This document shows positions 813 through 32,743 of a stretch of 33,445 bases of DNA, piece after piece. Within the stretch, counting starts at the first letter, position 1. Each line of letters begins with the position of its first letter. Under the pieces are notes generated by a model. The model made no database searches. It was not told where the DNA came from and saw nothing but the letters and a program-made list of their open reading frames with translations. The stretch spans positions 1 to 33,445 of the IMG/VR virus record IMGVR_UViG_3300027741_000164; one strand, 5' to 3'. The translations under genes were made by a program, and so were the position numbers. Source of the stretch: a virus.

Positions 813-820
813 TATAAATA
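813..820 (+). promoter_or_regulatory. T4-type late promoter (TATAAATA)
   Basis: This is a perfect match to the T4 late octamer TATAAATA. It is followed by exactly five bases (TTCAC) and the ATG at 826. If initiation occurs where it does in T4, the transcript begins at the start codon itself. Confidence 0.7.
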
Positions 821-825
821 TTCAC

Positions 826-1476
826 ATGAGAATATCACAGCTACAATTGACTGAAGGCAGAAACACACCTGTTATTTGTGTGGATGTGCAGCCTGAATAC
901 AGTGGTATGAATGATGGGGATGAAAATCCTGTGTTTGAACAGATCATACAATTTGTGAATAACCAAACTGGGCCTGTGCTCATGTATGTGAATGCTGAGG
1001 ATCAAGGTTTAACTGGGGATACCGTGCAGGATGTGAAGTCATACTGGGAAGATACCATACGTGGAGAAGATGCAGATCCGGAAGATTACTATGATTCTCC
1101 CATCAACTGGAGCAGATTTCAAATAGTCGACAAAGGTTACGGATTCCTGAGATCTTGGATGGATCATGACATCCCCGCTGCCACTATTATCAAAACTATA
1201 AGAATGATGTATCAACAAAAAGTAAGTAGTTCCGATGATCTTACTTTTCCAAAGTTGAGTCAACGGACTCCAGAAATGGTGGACATCAAGCACACAATTG
1301 AAGAAATGGATGGCGATTCAATCACCGTCAACTGGATTAGTATTGCACAGCTAAAACGCTTCCATGGAGCCTATATAGTGGGCGGTGGCAGGATGGAATG
1401 TCTGAGAGAAGTTGAACTGCTCATGAATGCATTCAATATAAAATACAAACGGATAGACCATCTGGTCTACGGGTAA
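826..1476 (+). CDS. Conserved phage protein, possibly cysteine-hydrolase (isochorismatase-like) fold
   Basis: The protein has 216 residues. An in-frame ATG at 790 is rejected because it lies upstream of the TATAAATA element; the ATG at 826 sits five bases after it. The N terminus MRISQLQLTEG resembles a T4-style capsid-targeting peptide ending in an LxE protease site (inference). Residues about 17-27 (VICVDVQPEY) and the C-terminal GGGRMECLREVELL recall the N-terminal Asp strand and the Cys-bearing helix of isochorismatase-like hydrolases, but the match is loose and catalytic Lys placement is not clear. It is followed after 5 bases by the 1090-residue gene, so the two are probably co-transcribed late. 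It may equally be an uncharacterised structural protein. Confidence 0.6.
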   Translation: MRISQLQLTEGRNTPVICVDVQPEYSGMNDGDENPVFEQIIQFVNNQTGPVLMYVNAEDQGLTGDTVQDVKSYWEDTIRGEDADPEDYYDSPINWSRFQIVDKGYGFLRSWMDHDIPAATIIKTIRMMYQQKVSSSDDLTFPKLSQRTPEMVDIKHTIEEMDGDSITVNWISIAQLKRFHGAYIVGGGRMECLREVELLMNAFNIKYKRIDHLVYG

Positions 1477-9072: not shown

Positions 9073-9080
9073 TTTAAATA
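9073..9080 (+). promoter_or_regulatory. T4-type late promoter (TTTAAATA)
   Basis: TAAATA at 9075-9080 is followed by exactly five bases (GGGTC) and the ATG at 9086. It lies just past the stop of the glycosyltransferase gene. Confidence 0.6.
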
Positions 9081-9085
9081 GGGTC

Positions 9086-10006
9086 ATGCCCAATTTATAT
9101 GCGTTTGGCGCTCAAGCCATCAACTACTACAGCAAGTGTGGAATATGTTCCACCACAGACTTGACGTCTTTTGTGCCAGTGAGTGCACCCAATCTGCCAT
9201 ACACTCACTTATTGAGTGCAACCAGAAGCCCAAGTGGTGCATGGTGCATGTCCACTAATTCGGGCGGTGCAGTAAGAACTTCCAATCTTGTGGATTACTA
9301 TTCATATGACTTGAGTAATAAACAATGGCAGTTTAACAAAGTGTTGTATAGCACTCAATTCGTTGCAGTAGGTTTTGTGAGAACTTTGGAAAACCTGGAA
9401 CAAGCCACTTTGTTTATAAGTGACTCTGCATTTGACGAATACAGCTGGCAAGCCAGATTTGCTGTGTTTGATACATACAGTGCATTTACAGATGTTTGCA
9501 ATACCAGTGCAGGTAATATGGTGGCTGTGGGGTATGCTAACAAGCTACAAACCAGTTTGATGATTGTGGGATCTGTATCAGGCAGATGGGAGCAGATACA
9601 ATTACCTGAGCACATACAAGGTGGTGTATGGAGTGTGAGCAGTGATGGCACACACATATGGGTGGGTGGAAGAGGATGGATCGCCGTTGCCCCTCTTACC
9701 AATTTGTCCAACTGGATACGTATTGATTTAGGAACTTCTGATACAGTCACTCAAATTGTGAATGCAAATGGATTGACTGCGGCTGTGGCAGGAGACAGGG
9801 TGTTCTATAGCACTAACGGTGTGGACTATGACAACATTCTTATTCCTGGGCATGAGCTTACATGTGTGCATGCTTACAACAGCAAGATAATTATTGGTGG
9901 CCACAGCATGCTCACACAAACAGACATGTGGGTGTTTGATCCTGTCTCCAAACAAGTGGATCCTAAAAAGACTGGAATACATGCATATTCGTTTGTGATG
10001 GTTTGA
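9086..10006 (+). CDS. Beta-propeller-like repeat protein, probable late structural protein
   Basis: The protein has 306 residues with no Lys/Arg-rich tail and almost no predicted helix. It consists of recurring short beta segments of the form (VxxxNGxxxAVxxDxVFYSTNGVDY), with the blades WVGGRGWIAVAPLTNLSNW and RVFYSTNGVDYDNILIPG the clearest. The repetition of 'S..G..W..G' blades about 40-50 residues apart suggests a beta-propeller of about six blades, as in sialidase/photosystem-II-stability-factor-like proteins of phage tails. The late promoter at 9073 supports a virion role such as a tail fibre accessory or receptor-binding component. It could instead be an uncharacterised secreted-like beta protein; there is no signal peptide. 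Confidence 0.55.
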   Translation: MPNLYAFGAQAINYYSKCGICSTTDLTSFVPVSAPNLPYTHLLSATRSPSGAWCMSTNSGGAVRTSNLVDYYSYDLSNKQWQFNKVLYSTQFVAVGFVRTLENLEQATLFISDSAFDEYSWQARFAVFDTYSAFTDVCNTSAGNMVAVGYANKLQTSLMIVGSVSGRWEQIQLPEHIQGGVWSVSSDGTHIWVGGRGWIAVAPLTNLSNWIRIDLGTSDTVTQIVNANGLTAAVAGDRVFYSTNGVDYDNILIPGHELTCVHAYNSKIIIGGHSMLTQTDMWVFDPVSKQVDPKKTGIHAYSFVMV

Positions 10007-13819: not shown

Positions 13820-13848
13820 TTGACAGTAATTCGCATGCATGATACAAT
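13820..13848 (+). promoter_or_regulatory. Sigma70-like early promoter before the Thg1-like gene
   Basis: TTGACA (13820-13825), 17-base spacer, TACAAT (13843-13848) is the best sigma70 match in the window. It contains the in-frame ATG at 13839, so that ATG cannot be in the transcript and the gene must start at 13878. Confidence 0.65.
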
Positions 13849-13877
13849 CTGTTATCAATTCAAATTGGAATACACAC

Positions 13878-14699
13878 ATGGATGATTTAGGCGACAGGAT
13901 CAAATCATATGAGGCACATGAAACCTCCCGTAAATTGATTCCGGGAATACCTGTGTACGCCCGCATGGACGGTAGGTCATTCAGCAAGTTTACTAGAGAC
14001 ATGGAAAGGCCGTTTGATGCCAGGATGACTGCGGCCATGGTGGACACTCTCAAGCATGTAGTGGACAAAAGTGGAGCCACTGTGGGTTACACACAATCAG
14101 ATGAACTTTCCTTGGCTTGGTGTAATCAAAATCCCGAAGTGGAACCTTGGTTTGGTGGCAAGGTACACAAGCTCACAAGTGTGTTGGCCAGCATGGCCAC
14201 TAGTGCATTCATGGTGAGCATACTCAATCATTTTGACAATTGTGAGGAACTACTATCTCAAATGCCTCACTTTGATTGCAGAGTGTTCCAGGTGCCCAAC
14301 TTGGACGAGCTGGCCAACTGCATGCTTTGGCGCAATCAGGATGCCACCAAGAATGCTATTAGCATGGCTACCCATCACTATTACAGTCACGCAGAGCTAC
14401 AGGGTAAGAGCAGTGCACAGAAGCAGGAGATGTTGTTTGAAAAGGGTCAAAACTTTAACGACTACCCTGCTTCTTTCAAACGAGGCACATTTGTACGCAA
14501 AGAAACTGTGACCAGGACATTTGATCCACAAGAGTGGGCCAGTATTCCTCTCAATCACAGACCAGATTTAGCATCACTTGTGCTCAGATCAGAGCTGATC
14601 ACATTTGACCTGCCGCCGCTAACTCGTGTAAAAAACAAAGTGGCTTGTCTGTTCAACAAGGCAGAGCCTGAACTAAAAGAACTCACAGGAGCACATTAA
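13878..14699 (+). CDS. Thg1-like 3'-5' polymerase (tRNAHis guanylyltransferase family)
   Basis: The protein has 273 residues from ATG 13878; the ATG at 13839 lies inside a promoter. Thg1-family enzymes add nucleotides to RNA 5' ends, opposite in direction to normal polymerases, either G-1 on tRNAHis or 5' repair by Thg1-like proteins. Motifs: VYARMDGRSFSKFTR with D31 as the first metal ligand, and VGYTQSDELSLAW with D75/E76 as the second carboxylate pair. Both are in the spacing of characterised members (D29 and D76 in the human enzyme). Length is normal. It is followed by a tiny gene and the sliding clamp, each after 3-base gaps, so it belongs to the replication-region operon. The RNA substrate is unknown; no tRNA gene is in this window. 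Confidence 0.9.
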   Translation: MDDLGDRIKSYEAHETSRKLIPGIPVYARMDGRSFSKFTRDMERPFDARMTAAMVDTLKHVVDKSGATVGYTQSDELSLAWCNQNPEVEPWFGGKVHKLTSVLASMATSAFMVSILNHFDNCEELLSQMPHFDCRVFQVPNLDELANCMLWRNQDATKNAISMATHHYYSHAELQGKSSAQKQEMLFEKGQNFNDYPASFKRGTFVRKETVTRTFDPQEWASIPLNHRPDLASLVLRSELITFDLPPLTRVKNKVACLFNKAEPELKELTGAH

Positions 14700-20602: not shown

Positions 20603-21283
20603 ATGGCATTCAATCGTACCAAATGTGACCCCGAACTAGGTCACAAGATCCACGAACATCTGATTCGATGCGGAGTGGAAACCCCCACAATTGATAACGG
20701 TATTAGCAGAACTGATCGTATCGAAATCATCGAAACTAAATTCCGAGACATCATGACCACCATGGGTCTGGACCTCGCAGACGACAGCCTAGCTGAAACT
20801 CCGTTACGAGTGGCAAAAATGTTCGTGGGGGAAATTTTTTGGGGTCTGGACTGGGAAGCGTTTCCCAAGTGCACCACTGTGCAGAACAAAATGGGTTATG
20901 ATGAAATGGTGGTGGAAAAGAACATCACCATCAAGAGCAACTGTGAACATCACTTTGTGCCCATCGTGGGTCTGGCTCATGTGGCATACATTCCCAACAA
21001 GAAGGTGTTGGGGCTCAGCAAGATTCCAAGAATTTGTGAATACTTTTCTCGCAGGCCACAGATTCAGGAGCGTCTGACTGAACAGGTGTTTCATGCCATG
21101 CAGTACATCCTGGAAACTGACAACATTGCAGTGGTGATCAATGCACGCCACCTGTGTGTGAGTCATCGTGGTGTGGAAGACACAAATGCTAGCACTGTGA
21201 CCAGCAAGCTGGGTGGTGCTTTCAAGGCAGATCCCATGGCCAGAGCAGAGTTCATGAACACATTGGACCTCAAGAGCCTGTAA
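20603..21283 (+). CDS. folE: GTP cyclohydrolase I (FolE)
   Basis: The protein has 226 residues with AAGGAA before the ATG. It converts GTP to 7,8-dihydroneopterin triphosphate, the first step towards 7-deazaguanines (and folate). Motifs: ETPLRVAKMFVGEIFWGLDW; IKSNCEHHFVPIVG carrying the zinc Cys and the catalytic His-His; VLGLSKIPRICEYFSRRPQIQ; and HLCVSHRGVED with the second zinc Cys. Length is normal for a T-fold FolE. It overlaps the next gene by one base and lies in one operon with queE. With the QueD-like protein and DpdA it forms a pathway for modified phage DNA rather than folate supply (inference from context). Confidence 0.95.
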   Translation: MAFNRTKCDPELGHKIHEHLIRCGVETPTIDNGISRTDRIEIIETKFRDIMTTMGLDLADDSLAETPLRVAKMFVGEIFWGLDWEAFPKCTTVQNKMGYDEMVVEKNITIKSNCEHHFVPIVGLAHVAYIPNKKVLGLSKIPRICEYFSRRPQIQERLTEQVFHAMQYILETDNIAVVINARHLCVSHRGVEDTNASTVTSKLGGAFKADPMARAEFMNTLDLKSL

Positions 21284-21594
21284 TGCTATTCCACAAACAG
21301 AAGCAGGTTGATATCAGCAGGGATCTTCCTGCCGATATCCATAGTGCTTACCTTCAGCACAGCATTCATGTCACATGTGAACAAACATACATGACTCCCA
21401 CAGATCGTACAGAGCCCACCCTGGAACAACTCACAGACTGGTGCAACGCACATTGTGATTCCATATTTGCAGTAACCAAATGGACTCAAAGTAATGCATA
21501 CTTTAGGTTTTATTGGGCATCTGACCTGCATCAGTTTATTTTACATTTGCAAAGTTTAACAGTTGCAAATGACCATTCTGATCTCACACAATAA
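21283..21594 (+). CDS. Small hypothetical protein between folE and queE
   Basis: The protein has 103 residues. The ATG overlaps the folE stop (TAATG), so translation is coupled. The N terminus is basic (LFHKQKQVDISRDL); the remainder has a beta-helix look (HVTCEQTYM; LTDWCNAHCDSIFAVTKW; FRFYWASDLHQFILHLQ), a ferredoxin-like size. Family not recognised. Location suggests a role or passenger status in the deazaguanine operon. Confidence 0.65.
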   Translation: MLFHKQKQVDISRDLPADIHSAYLQHSIHVTCEQTYMTPTDRTEPTLEQLTDWCNAHCDSIFAVTKWTQSNAYFRFYWASDLHQFILHLQSLTVANDHSDLTQ

Positions 21595-21615
21595 CATGGA
21601 AAGGAAGATAATCTG

Positions 21616-22485
21616 ATGTTTGGAAAAAACGAAGTGGTGGGGCAACGATACTTTGACAAAGCTGGTGACAAGCTGTTTGTCACAAGTGTGTTTTATACTT
21701 TACAAGGCGAGGGTCCCTATCGCGGTGAGCCAGCGGTGTTTGTGAGACTGGCCAAGTGCAATCTGGATTGTTCATTCTGTGATACTTTTTTTGATGATGG
21801 TGACTGGTTCACTATTGCAGAACTGGATGCCAAGATTGATCAAGTGATTTCTAACCACTTTCATGGAGAAGTTCCTGTATGGGCTCAGTTTGTCCAGGAG
21901 GGTGAATTCACTCGCAAGCGTAACATGGTGTTGGTGATCACAGGCGGTGAACCCATGTTGCAGAAGAATCTAGTGCCCTTCCTGGAACACATGCAGCACA
22001 GATTTGTGAAAACACAGATCGAAAGCAACGGCACCATTGTACAAGACATTCCTGACAGCACCACTCTGGTGGTGAGTCCCAAGTGTAGTGAGAAGAGGGG
22101 TGTGGCCATCAAATACCTTACTCCCAAGCCTGAAATGCTGGCTAGAGCAAACTGTCTCAAGTTTGTGATGAACGCAGATCCAGAGAGCCCATACAGCTCA
22201 GTCCCAGACTGGGCACATGAGTTCCGTGCAGCAGGTGGCACAGTTTTTGTGAGTCCCATGAACATCTACAACAGTGAACCTCAGAAGAGCAAGCAGTTGA
22301 GGGCAAGCACAAATCAGATCAGTCTGGAAGAGCGCAGCACGGTTGACGAGATCGTATCGTTTTGGGAACCTGGCCTTTTGAACATGGCTGAGAATCAAAA
22401 GAACCATGAGTATGCGGCTGCATACTGTGCACAACATGGTCTGATCATGAATCTACAAATCCACTTATACACCAGTTTGGCTTAA
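21616..22485 (+). CDS. queE: 7-carboxy-7-deazaguanine synthase (QueE), radical SAM
   Basis: The protein has 289 residues with AAGGAAG upstream. It converts 6-carboxytetrahydropterin to 7-carboxy-7-deazaguanine with a 4Fe-4S cluster. YTLQGEGPYRGEPAVFVRLAK leads to CNLDCSFCDT, giving the CxxxCxxC cluster ligands C48, C52 and C55. ITGGEPMLQ is the SAM-binding GGE motif, and QIESNGT, VSPKCSEKRG and LKFVMNAD are the later QueE strands. It is longer than many QueE (about 210-240) because of an insertion between the cluster motif and GGEP. It is the last enzyme of this pathway seen in the window. Confidence 0.92.
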   Translation: MFGKNEVVGQRYFDKAGDKLFVTSVFYTLQGEGPYRGEPAVFVRLAKCNLDCSFCDTFFDDGDWFTIAELDAKIDQVISNHFHGEVPVWAQFVQEGEFTRKRNMVLVITGGEPMLQKNLVPFLEHMQHRFVKTQIESNGTIVQDIPDSTTLVVSPKCSEKRGVAIKYLTPKPEMLARANCLKFVMNADPESPYSSVPDWAHEFRAAGGTVFVSPMNIYNSEPQKSKQLRASTNQISLEERSTVDEIVSFWEPGLLNMAENQKNHEYAAAYCAQHGLIMNLQIHLYTSLA

Positions 22486-22522: not shown

Positions 22523-23137
22523 GTGAAAAAGAACAAAATACCGTTTAGCTGGTGGCCAGGCCACTGGGGACTAAAAGGCAAGACCAGAGCTCGTGCTGTG
22601 GCAGAATATGAACTTGAGGGCATGGACTTGGATCTCAGACTGGCTGAAATTGACCATGATGATCCCAAGCTTCAAGCTCTAGCCAAGCTGGATGTGCGTC
22701 TAAAACACAAACAACTGGATGTGTATGATCATGACGTGGAATACCACAAGGTCAAGTTTGAAGGCCATGAATCACTGGAAGAGTTACTGGTGGGACTGGA
22801 ACTAAAACACCATCGTATCAGCCAACATGCACATGATCGCAAAGTGGCTGATCTCAGGTCAGAGCCATGGGTCAACATGCCTGACATCAAGTGGGATCCG
22901 CAAGATCCTTCCAAGAGCTACTTTGAACTGGACTACAATGACCACTTTGTCACGTTCCTGAGAGACAACAACTACAAGGGTGTGAGCGACGATCAGATTG
23001 TGGAAAGCTGGCTCACAGACGTTTGTCGAAGCGTGGCATCTGAATTGGCGCAAAGCGACCCAGCTTTTGTGAGTGAAGCTGTGACGCCTGTGACCAAGCG
23101 CAGACAGCCTCGTAAAAAGAAGACAGAATACAGCTAA
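22523..23137 (+). CDS. Conserved phage hypothetical protein (GTG start)
   Basis: The protein has 204 residues. The GTG start is supported by a strong AAGGAG five bases upstream. The N terminus KIPFSWWPGHWGLKGKTRARAVAEYELEG resembles a conserved opening in T4-like phage proteins of unknown function. Next come two charged, helix-rich segments (LDLRLAEIDHDDPKLQALAK; SLEELLVGLELKHHRISQH), an acidic region and a basic C terminus KRRQPRKKK. The basic tail and helical body suggest a nucleic-acid or scaffold contact, but no domain is recognised. It follows queE by 37 bases and is probably in the same transcript. Confidence 0.7.
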   Translation: MKKNKIPFSWWPGHWGLKGKTRARAVAEYELEGMDLDLRLAEIDHDDPKLQALAKLDVRLKHKQLDVYDHDVEYHKVKFEGHESLEELLVGLELKHHRISQHAHDRKVADLRSEPWVNMPDIKWDPQDPSKSYFELDYNDHFVTFLRDNNYKGVSDDQIVESWLTDVCRSVASELAQSDPAFVSEAVTPVTKRRQPRKKKTEYS

Positions 23138-23145
23138 CCTGACTG

Positions 23146-23182
23146 ATACCCCTGTGTGGTTAAATATATCACACAGGGGTAT
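23146..23182 (+). promoter_or_regulatory. 13-bp hairpin hiding a ribosome-binding site, with late promoter in its loop
   Basis: ATACCCCTGTGTG (23146-23158) pairs perfectly with CACACAGGGGTAT (23170-23182); the loop is 11 bases. The right arm holds the AGGGG ribosome-binding site (23175-23179) of the gene starting at 23186. The loop holds TTAAATA. Readthrough RNA would fold and block translation, whereas RNA started from the loop promoter near 23172 lacks the left arm and leaves AGGGG free. The same design is known for T4 gene e and soc. Confidence 0.65.
23159..23166 (+). promoter_or_regulatory. T4-type late promoter (GTTAAATA) inside hairpin loop
   Basis: TAAATA at 23161-23166; initiation at the T4 distance falls near 23172, inside the right arm of the hairpin and upstream of AGGGG. 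Confidence 0.6.
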
Positions 23183-23185
23183 TTC

Positions 23186-23860
23186 ATGACCGAACATTCA
23201 GATATACAAGACAAGTTACGCAGGTTTTTTAGGGTCACAGGCAAAGTGCATATCCGTGCAAATGGTGTGGTGGATGTGGTGGGTAATGTGTATCTGACCA
23301 GTGAGTGGTCCCAAATGCCTGTGCAATTTGGGCGAGTGACAGGTGTATTTATATGTGCTATAAACAAACTCACCACTCTGGCAGGATGCCCCACACATGT
23401 GGGCGACAACTTCGATTGCAGCAGCAACCTGTTGACCACTCTGGAAGGATGCCCCACACATTTGCGTAAAAACTTTCGCTGTTCAGATAATCTGATCACT
23501 AGCCTTACTCATGCTCCCACACATGTGCCTGGATCTTTCAATTGTTCCAAAAACAAGCTGACCAACTTGGTGGGCGCTCCTGAATATGTGGGAGATGACA
23601 TGAGCTGCCATAACAATCCGTTAGAGAGTTTGCAGGGTGCTCCCACACATGTGGGCAGAAATTGGTGGATTTCATATCATGAAAAACTGCCATTATTGCG
23701 CACTATTATCGGTCAACAAGTTGAATTCATGAACCTGAATCCTACAAGTAACCAAGTGGCTGAAATACTCAATAAACACACTGGTGAAGGCAAGGCAGGT
23801 GCTTTGAAAGCTGCTGCAGAACTGATCAGAGCAGGATACAAGGATAATGCCAGATGGTAG
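23186..23860 (+). CDS. LRR-like repeat protein (paralogue 1)
   Basis: The protein has 224 residues from ATG 23186, chosen because AGGGG lies six bases upstream; an ORF extension to 23156 lies in the hairpin. A head module NGVVDVVGNVYL...VQFGRVTG is followed by five 20-residue repeats of the form FxCSxNxLTxLxGxPTHVGxN (from about 58 to 157). The tail ends WWISYHEKLPLLR and GKAGALKAAAELIRAG-KDNARW. These bacterial/phage LRR-like repeats would form a short solenoid for protein contacts. The gene at 23854 has the same head, repeats and tail, and overlaps by 7 bases. The partial gene at 1-210 shares the head. The target is unknown. Late control by the hairpin promoter suggests a late product. Confidence 0.85.
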   Translation: MTEHSDIQDKLRRFFRVTGKVHIRANGVVDVVGNVYLTSEWSQMPVQFGRVTGVFICAINKLTTLAGCPTHVGDNFDCSSNLLTTLEGCPTHLRKNFRCSDNLITSLTHAPTHVPGSFNCSKNKLTNLVGAPEYVGDDMSCHNNPLESLQGAPTHVGRNWWISYHEKLPLLRTIIGQQVEFMNLNPTSNQVAEILNKHTGEGKAGALKAAAELIRAGYKDNARW

Positions 23861-24459
23861 ATGTTTCCGCAATAAAAACATTGTTAACAGATCATTTTGA
23901 CGTGTATGGTGACGCACATATTGATCCAGAAACAGGCACAGTGGATGTGGAAGGCAGAGTAATATTAGCTAAACCCTTACGCAAGTTTCCTGTGCAATTT
24001 GGTACAGTGACTGGTAAATTTACATGCAGTGACAACAAATTGGAAAGTTTGGTGGGCGCACCTCACACAGTGGGGGATATTTTTGCATGTACTAAAAACA
24101 GACTGACCAGTTTAGTGGGTGGGCCCCAATGGGTGGGTGGCGCATTTTTGTGTTCTCTTAATCAATTAACCAGTTTGGTGGGCGCCCCTGATCATGTGGG
24201 GCGCAGCCTGCAGATAAGCGACAATCCTTTGAAATCCCTAGATGGCATGCCTGTGGAGTTGATGGGAAGTATTTGGTTAGACTATCACAAGGATTTGCCC
24301 TTGTTAAGATTATTAGGGGTTCCAGATTTCATGCTGAGTTATGCCCCTAATCCAGTAGGAGCGATATTGGACAAATACAAGAGTCAAGGTAAACCTGGTG
24401 CTCTGAAAGCCGCAGCTGAACTGATCAGAGCTGGATTCAAGGGAAATGCCAGATGGTAA
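23854..24459 (+). CDS. LRR-like repeat protein (paralogue 2)
   Basis: The protein has 201 residues and its start overlaps the stop of paralogue 1, so the two are translationally coupled. The head is ETGTVDVEGRVIL...VQFGTVTGKF. Four 20-residue repeats follow (for example FTCSDNKLESLVGAPHTVGD, then FACTKNRLTSLVGGPQWVGG), then IWLDYHKDLPLLR and GKPGALKAAAELIRAGFKGNARW. Compared with paralogue 1 it lost one repeat and is also conserved at the DNA level in the last 60 bases, so a recent tandem duplication is likely. Function unknown. Confidence 0.85.
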   Translation: MVDVSAIKTLLTDHFDVYGDAHIDPETGTVDVEGRVILAKPLRKFPVQFGTVTGKFTCSDNKLESLVGAPHTVGDIFACTKNRLTSLVGGPQWVGGAFLCSLNQLTSLVGAPDHVGRSLQISDNPLKSLDGMPVELMGSIWLDYHKDLPLLRLLGVPDFMLSYAPNPVGAILDKYKSQGKPGALKAAAELIRAGFKGNARW

Positions 24460-24527: not shown

Positions 24528-25523
24528 ATGGCCACATACATTTTAACTGACACTTTGAACTTGGCCATGCGAGTGCGATATGGCATGCGATCTCCTGACA
24601 TGGACACCATGGTGGGTATGGCCATCCATGTGATGTTTAACGCCATCAAAAAGGTGTGGAATCAGTTTGATGCAGATCATGCAGTATTTTTACTTGATGG
24701 TAAGTCATGGCGCAAAGACTTTTATACACCCTACAAAGCCAACCGCAAGGAAACTGCGGCTGCTCGTTCTCCAGAAGAAGTGGCCGATGACAAACAGTTT
24801 TTTGAGGCCATTGATCAGTTCATTCAGTTTTTGAGTGATAAAACCAATGCCAGTGTGATCCGACATCCTAGAGCAGAGGCAGATGATCTGATTGCTCGCT
24901 GGATCCACATGCATCCTGATGACTCACATGTGATTGTGAGTACAGATTCAGACTTCATGCAACTGTTGAGCCCAAATGTCAAGATCTTCAACGGTATTGC
25001 GGGTCTGCTGTACACACATGAAGGCGTGTGGGATAAAAATGGAAAAGCGGCCTTGGACAAGAAAGGCATGCCCATGCAAATTCCCAATCCAGAATGGCTG
25101 CTGTTTGAGAAGATCATACGTGGTGATGACTCAGACAATGTGATGAGTGCATACCCAGGGGTCCGCAAAAAGCGGCTACAAGAAGCATTTGATAATCGTC
25201 ACCATCAAGGATATGCATGGAACAATCTGATGTTGAGTAGCTGGACAGATCATGTGGGGCAAGACCATCGTGTCCGGGATGTGTATGAACGCAACCGCAC
25301 ACTGATTGATCTGACTGCGCAGCCCCCAGAACTCAAGCTACAGTTTGATGAACAGATCACACAAACTGTGAATATGCCGCTCAAACAACAAATTGGATTT
25401 CATCTGCTCAAGTTTGCAAATCAATGGGGTCTGGTCAGAATTGAGCAAAACTCAGCAGATTATACAGCATGTTTGAGTAAGCCTTATACAGGGTTGCACA
25501 AACACTCTACCCAAGATTCTTAA
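24528..25523 (+). CDS. rnh: T4 RNase H-type 5'-3' exonuclease (FEN family)
   Basis: The protein has 331 residues from ATG 24528. In-frame ATGs at 24519 and 24525 are close alternatives, while 24483 lies in the promoter. It removes RNA primers during lagging-strand synthesis. Motifs: ILTDTLNLAMR (first metal Asp), AVFLLDGKSWRKDFYTPYKANR (typical of T4 rnh), RAEADDLIARW with E117, D119 and D120, VSTDSDFMQLL, and IIRGDDSDNV followed by a helix-hairpin-helix-type stretch. All carboxylates are present. Length is close to T4 RNase H (305). It is expressed from its own early promoter, separate from gp43. Confidence 0.92.
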   Translation: MATYILTDTLNLAMRVRYGMRSPDMDTMVGMAIHVMFNAIKKVWNQFDADHAVFLLDGKSWRKDFYTPYKANRKETAAARSPEEVADDKQFFEAIDQFIQFLSDKTNASVIRHPRAEADDLIARWIHMHPDDSHVIVSTDSDFMQLLSPNVKIFNGIAGLLYTHEGVWDKNGKAALDKKGMPMQIPNPEWLLFEKIIRGDDSDNVMSAYPGVRKKRLQEAFDNRHHQGYAWNNLMLSSWTDHVGQDHRVRDVYERNRTLIDLTAQPPELKLQFDEQITQTVNMPLKQQIGFHLLKFANQWGLVRIEQNSADYTACLSKPYTGLHKHSTQDS

Positions 25524-25529
25524 TAAATA
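25522..25529 (+). promoter_or_regulatory. T4-type late promoter (AATAAATA)
   Basis: TAAATA at 25524-25529 is followed by exactly five bases (CTCAC) and the ATG at 25535; the site overlaps the stop codon of rnh. Confidence 0.65.
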
Positions 25530-25534
25530 CTCAC

Positions 25535-26056
25535 ATGAACTGGGATCATGCTTGGAGTCAATTGGGTGATCTGATACCACCAGAAGTATCCCATCATCGT
25601 GCACATGCACATCCTGGTGTCACCTGGTGGCTGAAATGTGCTGTGCCTGAGTACACCCCTCCCGCACATTATTGGAGTCAGATTGCTTACACACATACAA
25701 ATTTAGTACATGTGCGCAATCAAGCATGGGATTGGCATGGGGCGCAAATTCCTGATTGTGTGAGTGTGTGGATCAAGAATACCCATGATGTCACCATGCA
25801 TGTGCATGTGGACTCATGGGATTATGAAATTCACACATTTGCACAGGGCCAGCATCAATTTGCACGCAATCTAAAAGCTGAAATCCAAAATAACTGTGAC
25901 GATCACACTTGGCATGAGATAAATTGTGCTCTACAATTGTTAACACAACATGTGAGCAATACAGAAGCTCATGTGCGTAGACAATCATTTAAGGTGATTC
26001 ATGGGAAAAAAACTACAAGCCACAAGCGTACAGGACCAAACCTGGATAGTGAGTGA
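25535..26056 (+). CDS. Hypothetical late protein, Trp/His-rich
   Basis: The protein has 173 residues and is rich in Trp and His (PGVTWWLKC, WDWHGAQIPDC, MHVHVDSWDYEIH). The alternating pattern suggests beta structure in the first two-thirds and a basic helical end (VRRQSFKVIHGKKTTSHKRT). Its late promoter abuts the ATG. Its last 56 bases overlap the next gene in a different frame, which is unusual for this window and leaves the exact C terminus open to doubt. Family not recognised. Confidence 0.6.
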   Translation: MNWDHAWSQLGDLIPPEVSHHRAHAHPGVTWWLKCAVPEYTPPAHYWSQIAYTHTNLVHVRNQAWDWHGAQIPDCVSVWIKNTHDVTMHVHVDSWDYEIHTFAQGQHQFARNLKAEIQNNCDDHTWHEINCALQLLTQHVSNTEAHVRRQSFKVIHGKKTTSHKRTGPNLDSE

Positions 26057-27809: not shown

Positions 27810-27829
27810 CGTGCGAGATCACAATGTGA

Positions 27830-27837
27830 TATAAATA
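27830..27837 (+). promoter_or_regulatory. T4-type late promoter (TATAAATA)
   Basis: This is a perfect octamer. It is preceded by the dyad ATCACA-A-TGTGAT (27818-27830). The predicted start near 27843 gives a 19-base leader with GAAGG before ATG 27862, so unlike most late sites here it has a ribosome-binding site. Confidence 0.6.
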
Positions 27838-27861
27838 TGGTACACTGTGAAGGTACCCATC

Positions 27862-28158
27862 ATGAGCAGACCTAAACCTAAAGTTTTATTAACTCACACT
27901 AATAACCAAAACTATTTGAGTGAACAGGTACTGTATGTGAAAGCCATGTATGTGGTTTGTTACGATGGTAAACCCATAAATCTGAAAATTGTGCACAGTT
28001 TGCTTAGTGATCAAACACCCAAATACAGACGCACCTGTTTTCCAGAGTCACCGGGTCATGCCCTAAACTTGTCAGAGAAGCTAAATCTCTTGTTCAAAAC
28101 TGACAAGTTTACTGTATGGGAAATGCAGCCCACAACCAGAGTAACTAGATCCATATGA
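27862..28158 (+). CDS. Conserved small phage protein
   Basis: The protein has 98 residues from ATG 27862; the GTG at 27847 is rejected because GAAGG is better placed for 27862. The core is AMYVVCYDGKPINLKI, then YRRTCFPESPGHALNLSEKLN and LFKTDKFTVWEM. This combination recurs in T4-like phages as a small protein of unknown function. Its stop overlaps the next start (ATGA), so the two are translated together. Confidence 0.7.
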   Translation: MSRPKPKVLLTHTNNQNYLSEQVLYVKAMYVVCYDGKPINLKIVHSLLSDQTPKYRRTCFPESPGHALNLSEKLNLLFKTDKFTVWEMQPTTRVTRSI

Positions 28159-32436: not shown

Positions 32437-32444
32437 AATAAATA
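32437..32444 (+). promoter_or_regulatory. T4-type late promoter (AATAAATA)
   Basis: TAAATA at 32439-32444 is followed by five bases and the GTG at 32450. The GTG start at the same five-base distance as the ATG sites supports the GTG call. Confidence 0.5.
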
Positions 32445-32449
32445 AATTT

Positions 32450-32743
32450 GTGACGCAAACATCATGTGTACAATTAAACTTTGAATCTCCAGACCGGCTG
32501 TTAGAGCTCAAGATGGCCATCTGGGAAACACAATTGCAAGATCTTTATCCCACCGCGCATATCATGTGTGCATATGATCATGTTCACCATCATGGACATG
32601 TGACAATACAATTTGAATCTGGTGAAGATCATGTGCATTGGTGTTTGAGCCAACCAGCATGCTCCCAGTTAAATCAATTATTGACATATCACACGCCCTT
32701 GTTAAACTGCAAGTATGAGCAGCAAATCCGAAGTATACATTAG
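32450..32743 (+). CDS. Hypothetical protein with GTG start, His-rich
   Basis: The protein has 97 residues. There is no ribosome-binding site before the GTG, but a late promoter is placed so that transcription would begin at the start codon. DRLLELKMAIWETQL is a helix; the His cluster CAYDHVHHHGHVTIQF could bind metal; the remainder is beta-like. It overlaps the next gene by 29 bases. Family not recognised. Confidence 0.5.
   Translation: MTQTSCVQLNFESPDRLLELKMAIWETQLQDLYPTAHIMCAYDHVHHHGHVTIQFESGEDHVHWCLSQPACSQLNQLLTYHTPLLNCKYEQQIRSIH

What the first reader, a model, noticed from the sequence alone, without database searches (positions are those of the whole stretch)
23146..23188. Hairpin that hides a ribosome-binding site and carries a late promoter in its loop
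A perfect 13-bp stem covers the AGGGG of the LRR-like gene at 23186, and the 11-base loop contains GTTAAATA. Transcripts reading through from upstream carry both arms and should be untranslatable for this gene. Transcripts started at the T4 late distance (near 23172) lose the left arm and should be translated. This reproduces the design known for T4 gene e and soc, in a different gene. The sequence features are seen; the switching is inferred.
Basis: partly seen in the sequence, partly recalled or inferred. Interest (0 to 1): 0.75.

Follow-up and report, generated by a model that had tools for sequence, protein, structure and literature searches.

The report
Hairpin lock opened by late promoter
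A giant bacterial virus appears to hide the ribosome-landing site of one gene inside an RNA hairpin and to place a late-infection promoter inside that hairpin, so that only late messages, which lack half of the hairpin, can be translated; the trick is known from phage T4, and here it is found in a distant jumbo-phage group where it recurs.

Summary
A perfect 13-bp stem (23146-23158 / 23170-23182, 11-nt loop) covers the Shine-Dalgarno (SD) AGGGG of the LRR-like gene at 23186, and GTTAAATA lies in the loop. It is the strongest clean hairpin in the 33-kb window and far exceeds shuffles. The window is a fragment of a jumbo phage related to Agrobacterium phage Atu_ph07, Sinorhizobium phage Phosso and Pseudomonas phage PA5oct. 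All three encode a gp55-like late sigma factor.

In this clade (A/T)TAAATA is a real promoter core: it sits exactly 12 nt before many start codons, conserved between orthologues down to about 30% identity. That register puts +1 at 23172, inside the stem. Predicted SD accessibility rises from 0.00 (read-through RNA) to 0.68 (late RNA). A 92%-identical relative keeps the 48-nt intergenic region unchanged although synonymous sites differ by about 0.2 per site. In two relatives without the gene, the hairpin is absent.

The same design recurs at another gene (27862), with different stem sequences in several lineages (combined p about 6e-5), and sporadically across the relatives.

This is a new member of a known kind (T4 e, soc, 49, I-TevI, I-TevII). 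The switching itself remains inferred. The less expected by-product is a set of apparently leaderless late genes in the same clade.

The parts
22523..23137 (+). Upstream gene, phrog_13349 (virion structural protein); presumed source of read-through transcripts; stop 9 nt before the hairpin
   Evidence: synteny with Phosso, PA5oct and Atu_ph07
23146..23158 (+). Left arm of the stem (ATACCCCTGTGTG); lost from late transcripts
23159..23166 (+). GTTAAATA, late-promoter core (WTAAATA, 23160-23166) in the loop
   Evidence: motif validated by fixed 12-nt spacing to start codons
23172..23172 (+). Predicted late transcription start (12 nt from the first base of the WTAAATA core)
   Evidence: inferred from clade register and T4 register (PMC2988020)
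23170..23182 (+). Right arm of the stem (CACACAGGGGTAT); contains the SD
23175..23179 (+). AGGGG, Shine-Dalgarno sequence; predicted pairing with anti-SD -6.6 kcal/mol
23186..23860 (+). LRR-like gene (224 aa), first of two overlapping LRR-like genes; dN 0.05, dS 0.23 against its relative, so under purifying selection
23854..24459 (+). Second LRR-like gene; start overlaps the stop of the first (ATGGTAG), so probably coupled to it and under the same switch
   Evidence: coupling inferred
27830..27837 (+). TATAAATA, late promoter of the 98-aa gene at 27862, lying inside a weaker imperfect hairpin (about 27819-27828 with 27841-27850) next to the SD
27862..28158 (+). 98-aa conserved gene of unknown function (begins MSRPKPKV); orthologues carry a late promoter in hairpins of different sequence

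Best explanation
The element is a late-expression lock of the T4 type. RNA that reads through from upstream genes carries both arms, folds into a very stable hairpin and hides the SD of the LRR-like gene, so the gene (and probably the overlapping second LRR-like gene) is not translated from it. Late in infection the phage's gp55-like sigma factor directs host RNA polymerase to GTTAAATA in the loop; transcription starts at about 23172, inside the right arm, so the late RNA (5'-CACAGGGGUAUUUCAUG...) lacks the left arm, cannot fold, and is translated. Shown here: the hairpin, the promoter motif and its register in the clade, the conservation of the element with the gene, and recurrence of the design. 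Inferred: that read-through RNA exists, that the promoter is used late, that this phage has the sigma factor, and that translation switches.
For: Perfect stem far beyond chance. (A/T)TAAATA sits exactly 12 nt before start codons in this clade (18 cases in the first count; other distances 0-7, mostly 0-4), with the arrangement kept between orthologues at 94, 74, 50, 43, 42 and 31% identity; that validates TTAAATA as a core and sets +1 at 23172. SD unpaired probability 0.00 in the long RNA and 0.68 in the short one. In the relative G001 the 48 nt between stop and start are unchanged although dS of the two flanking genes is 0.21-0.23; about 9-10 changes would be expected if neutral. Hairpin absent where the LRR genes are absent. 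At the gene at 27862, orthologues in several lineages have the promoter inside or beside stems of different sequence (TATTATCTGCA/TGCAGATAATA; GGTGTGCC/GGCACACC; CCAGTAA/TTACTGG and others), Fisher p 6e-5 over eight. SD-covering stems of 7 or more pairs are 2.6 times more frequent at leader-bearing late promoters than at other starts in four genome sets, p 0.006. Named relatives encode gp55-like sigma, and ATAAATA is the predicted late motif in the related jumbo phage CBB (PMC5259590). T4 e and I-TevII behave alike in the same calculation.
Against: No transcript data. The window and its sister fragments do not show the sigma gene (one marginal hit only), though all are fragments. The loop motif differs from the T4 consensus TATAAATA at two of eight positions. 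For the LRR gene itself only two near-identical sequences and one decayed copy exist, so there is no compensatory change in this very stem beyond two G-U substitutions in the decayed copy. Most leader-bearing late promoters of the clade do not sit in such hairpins (median interaction no different from control). The enrichment test draws three control geometries per gene, which are not independent. Other LRR arrays in more distant contigs lack the hairpin.
Confidence: 0.8

Rival explanations
1. The hairpin is an intrinsic terminator of the upstream structural gene, and its position over the SD is incidental.
For: It begins 9 nt after the upstream stop; the stem is G+C-rich and its core is followed by TATTTC.
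Against: No U tract, and the terminator scan does not report it. It is absent after the same upstream gene in L006 and L007, where the LRR genes are missing, so it belongs to the LRR gene. A terminator does not need a promoter core in its loop.
Confidence: 0.08
2. The inverted repeat acts as DNA: an operator for a repressor that blocks the late promoter in the loop, as I-TevI does at its own late promoter.
For: A palindrome centred on a promoter is a usual operator shape; T4 homing endonucleases add such autorepression (PMC2988022).
Against: The LRR-like protein shows no DNA-binding family. Stems at the 27862 orthologues share no sequence with this one or with each other, as expected for RNA pairing and not for one DNA-binding site.
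Confidence: 0.06
3. The hairpin mainly protects or processes the RNA (stability element or nuclease site) and does not control translation.
For: General knowledge: stable 5' hairpins can protect mRNA. The stem is very stable.
Against: The predicted late RNA would lack the left arm and so the hairpin; the SD is buried in the stem rather than beside it.
Confidence: 0.05

Closest known systems
T4 I-TevII / I-TevI leader hairpins (late promoter in the hairpin, RBS sequestered)
   Same: TATA-like late promoter in the loop, SD in the right arm, late RNA starts after the left arm; the I-TevII sequence CCTCGTATAAATATGAATACGAGG has the same layout (PMC2988022)
   Different: Gene is an LRR-like protein of a jumbo phage, not an intron endonuclease; the stem is longer and stronger (-22.4 against -13.5 kcal/mol in the same measure)
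T4 gene e (lysozyme), soc and 49 leaders
   Same: Read-through early RNA is poorly translated, late RNA well (PMC3014915); same calculation gives -13.3 for e and -7.0 for soc
   Different: In e the promoter sequence forms part of the stem; other gene, other phage clade, core TTAAATA instead of TATAAATA
Aeh1 mobE and T4 segB hairpins
   Same: Same arrangement reported in T4-related phages (PMC2988022)
   Different: Homing endonuclease genes; sequences not tested here

Membership tests
T4-type late-promoter-in-hairpin translational lock | Stem that sequesters the SD in the long transcript | tested here: met
   SD unpaired probability 0.00
T4-type late-promoter-in-hairpin translational lock | Late promoter placed so that the late RNA lacks the 5' arm | tested here: met
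   Motif and 12-nt register established from the clade; predicted +1 at 23172; SD unpaired 0.68 in the short RNA. Sequence evidence only
T4-type late-promoter-in-hairpin translational lock | Phage encodes T4-type late sigma (gp55) | tested here: inconclusive
   Named relatives Phosso, Atu_ph07, PA5oct and SCTP-2 do, E 1e-18 to 1e-22; the window and sister contigs are fragments without it, apart from a marginal E 0.001 stretch in G003
T4-type late-promoter-in-hairpin translational lock | Two transcript classes and a translation switch demonstrated | not testable with these tools
   Needs 5'-end mapping and reporters
Intrinsic terminator | Stem followed by a U tract | tested here: not met
   Followed by TTC; not reported by the scan
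Atu_ph07/Phosso/PA5oct-related jumbo phages | Shared polymerase and gene order | tested here: met
   DNA polymerase best hits Phosso 46% and Atu_ph07 44%; order queE, structural gene, polI-like exonuclease, 98-aa gene, ATPase shared in part or whole

The most novel reading that the evidence does not exclude
In this jumbo-phage clade the late promoter itself licenses translation by two alternative means: (a) leader-bearing genes whose SD is locked in a hairpin that only a late start removes, and (b) leaderless genes whose start codon is at +1 of the late promoter and which lack an SD, so that they too would be silent inside read-through RNA. Together these would make such late genes translatable only from their own late transcripts even though the genome is transcribed through.
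Probability: 0.4. Interest if true: 0.7.

Novelty: new member of a known kind. Interest (0 to 1): 0.5.

Why it matters
It carries a classic T4 gene-control device beyond the T-even phages to a distant group of jumbo phages, and shows it recurring at orthologous genes with turnover of the stem sequence, which argues that the structure, not the sequence, is selected. The calibrated motif and register make late genes of these phages predictable from sequence and point to an unexpected class of leaderless late messages that one 5'-end map would confirm or refute.

Tried and rejected
Search for the loop sequence in viral contigs: at least 119 hits, nearly all without a stem. L021 has a 13-bp stem around the same loop, but it lies in a contig that looks unrelated to this clade, about 80 nt from the next gene, so it was set aside as coincidence. 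L092's short stem has no evident relation either. Rfam found nothing at the hairpin. DNA similarity to known phages was too low to help, protein searches did. Gp45 clamp not found in the fragments. No LRR homologue was found in the four named relatives. A group-wide test of interaction energy over all leader-bearing late promoters was not significant; only the stricter SD-covering stem count was. The T4 gene 49 internal start showed no motif within 110 nt in my calculation. SCTP-2 was left out of the orthologue test because its motif lies further than 60 nt upstream. The PA5oct transcriptome paper was not held.

Full report
Observation. It is a 13-nt fully complementary pair with an 11-nt spacer; every longer inverted repeat in the 33,445-base window is imperfect. 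Folding gives -24.7 kcal/mol, z about -6, none of 200 shuffles as good.

Setting. All main genes run on the + strand. Upstream is a structural-protein gene (phrog_13349, 22523-23137), downstream a second LRR-like gene overlapping the first (ATGGTAG), then a 5'-3' exonuclease. The family-B DNA polymerase is nearest to Sinorhizobium phage Phosso (46%) and Agrobacterium phage Atu_ph07 (44%), and gene order agrees in part with Phosso, PA5oct and Atu_ph07. The window is therefore a fragment of a jumbo phage of that T4-related group. Phosso, Atu_ph07, PA5oct and SCTP-2 all carry a gp55-like late sigma factor; CBB, a related jumbo phage, has a gp55-like sigma and a predicted ATAAATA late motif (PMC5259590).

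Is TTAAATA a promoter here? In the window and fourteen related contigs, (A/T)TAAATA lies exactly 12 nt before a start codon 18 times, while other distances from 8 to 45 hold 0 to 7, mostly 0 to 4; variants of the motif show no such peak (some contigs are near-duplicates, 13 different sequences are listed). The arrangement is kept between orthologues: the 9086 gene at 94, 50 and 31% identity, the 826 gene at 74%, the 25535 gene at 43%, the 32450 gene at 42%. In the T4 register (TATA box about one helical turn upstream of the start, first positions -13/-12; PMC2988020) the start codon is then at +1. This shows both that TTAAATA serves as well as ATAAATA and that +1 lies 12 nt from the first base of the core. 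For the hairpin this means 23172, inside the right arm.

Two RNAs. With the left arm the SD is unpaired with probability 0.00; in RNA starting at 23172 with 0.68. Interaction between lost and kept parts is -22.4 kcal/mol (p 0.001 by shuffles), stronger than T4 e (-13.3), I-TevII (-13.5) and soc (-7.0) in the same measure.

Evolution at this locus. In G001 the 48 intergenic bases are identical, although synonymous divergence of the flanking genes is 0.21 and 0.23; the LRR gene has dN 0.05. By my arithmetic, no change in 48 neutral sites at that divergence has a probability of about 4e-5. In G002 the gene is a remnant without its ATG, the core reads TTCAATA, and the stem still pairs with two G-U pairs. 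In L006 and L007 the LRR genes and the hairpin are both missing. The hairpin thus goes with the gene.

Recurrence. The 98-aa gene at 27862 has a late promoter 29-44 nt before its start in eight lineages. The stems around it have different sequences: TATTATCTGCA/TGCAGATAATA in G006-G008, GGTGTGCC/GGCACACC in G002, TCACA-TGTG/CAC-TGTGA type in the window, CCAGTAA/TTACTGG in PA5oct, and a stem that includes the promoter itself in Atu_ph07. Combined p is 6e-5; leaving out G006, through which I noticed the gene, it is about 4e-4 by my arithmetic. G003, PA5oct and the window itself are individually weak (p 0.15-0.25). Across the window clade, PA5oct, Atu_ph07 and Phosso, stems of at least 7 pairs covering the SD occur at 11 of 100 leader-bearing late promoters against 133 of 2973 control geometries (odds ratio 2.6, p 0.006; controls drawn three per gene, gene calls crude). 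Clear examples: AAAACCTCGGAA/TTCCGAGGTTTT in Atu_ph07, CTTCTAACTAT/ATAGTTAGGAG in Phosso, GTCTCCGT/ACGGAGAC in PA5oct. The design is a minority device: median interaction energy does not differ from control.

Conclusion. The best explanation is the T4-type lock: read-through RNA is untranslatable for the LRR-like pair, late RNA is translatable. The mechanism is documented for T4 e, soc, 49, I-TevI and related genes (PMC3014915; PMC2988022). This is a new member of a known kind, in a phage group where I found no report of it in the papers searched, a search limited to open-licence papers. What the LRR-like proteins do, and why they must be late, is unknown. No RNA was measured.

Noticed in passing
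window 814-828, 9074-9088, 25523-25537, 32438-32452: Late-promoter cores (A/T)TAAATA exactly 12 nt before the start codons at 826, 9086, 25535 and 32450, with no SD between; conserved in orthologues down to 31% identity. Suggests leaderless late mRNAs in this jumbo-phage clade; not clearly enriched in Phosso, PA5oct, Atu_ph07 or SCTP-2.
   Followed up: partly
window 27819-28158: A 98-aa conserved gene of unknown function whose late promoter sits in hairpins of different sequence in different lineages.
   Followed up: yes
L143, L145, L146, L148: LRR-like genes form tandem arrays of several members joined by overlapping stop/start codons (ATGGTGA or ATGGTAG) in related contigs; copy number varies between relatives.
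   Followed up: partly
L005 6615-6825: The first LRR-like gene is decayed to a remnant in G002 while its C-terminal end and the second gene persist.
   Followed up: partly
L021 1202-1238: Contig that looks unrelated to this clade, with the same loop GTTAAATATAT in a 13-bp stem of other sequence, intergenic and not at an RBS; taken as coincidence.
   Followed up: partly
window 13839-14699 and 20603-22485: tRNA-His guanylyltransferase, GTP cyclohydrolase and QueE-like genes: tRNA-repair and deazaguanine-type metabolism in the same phage.
   Followed up: no
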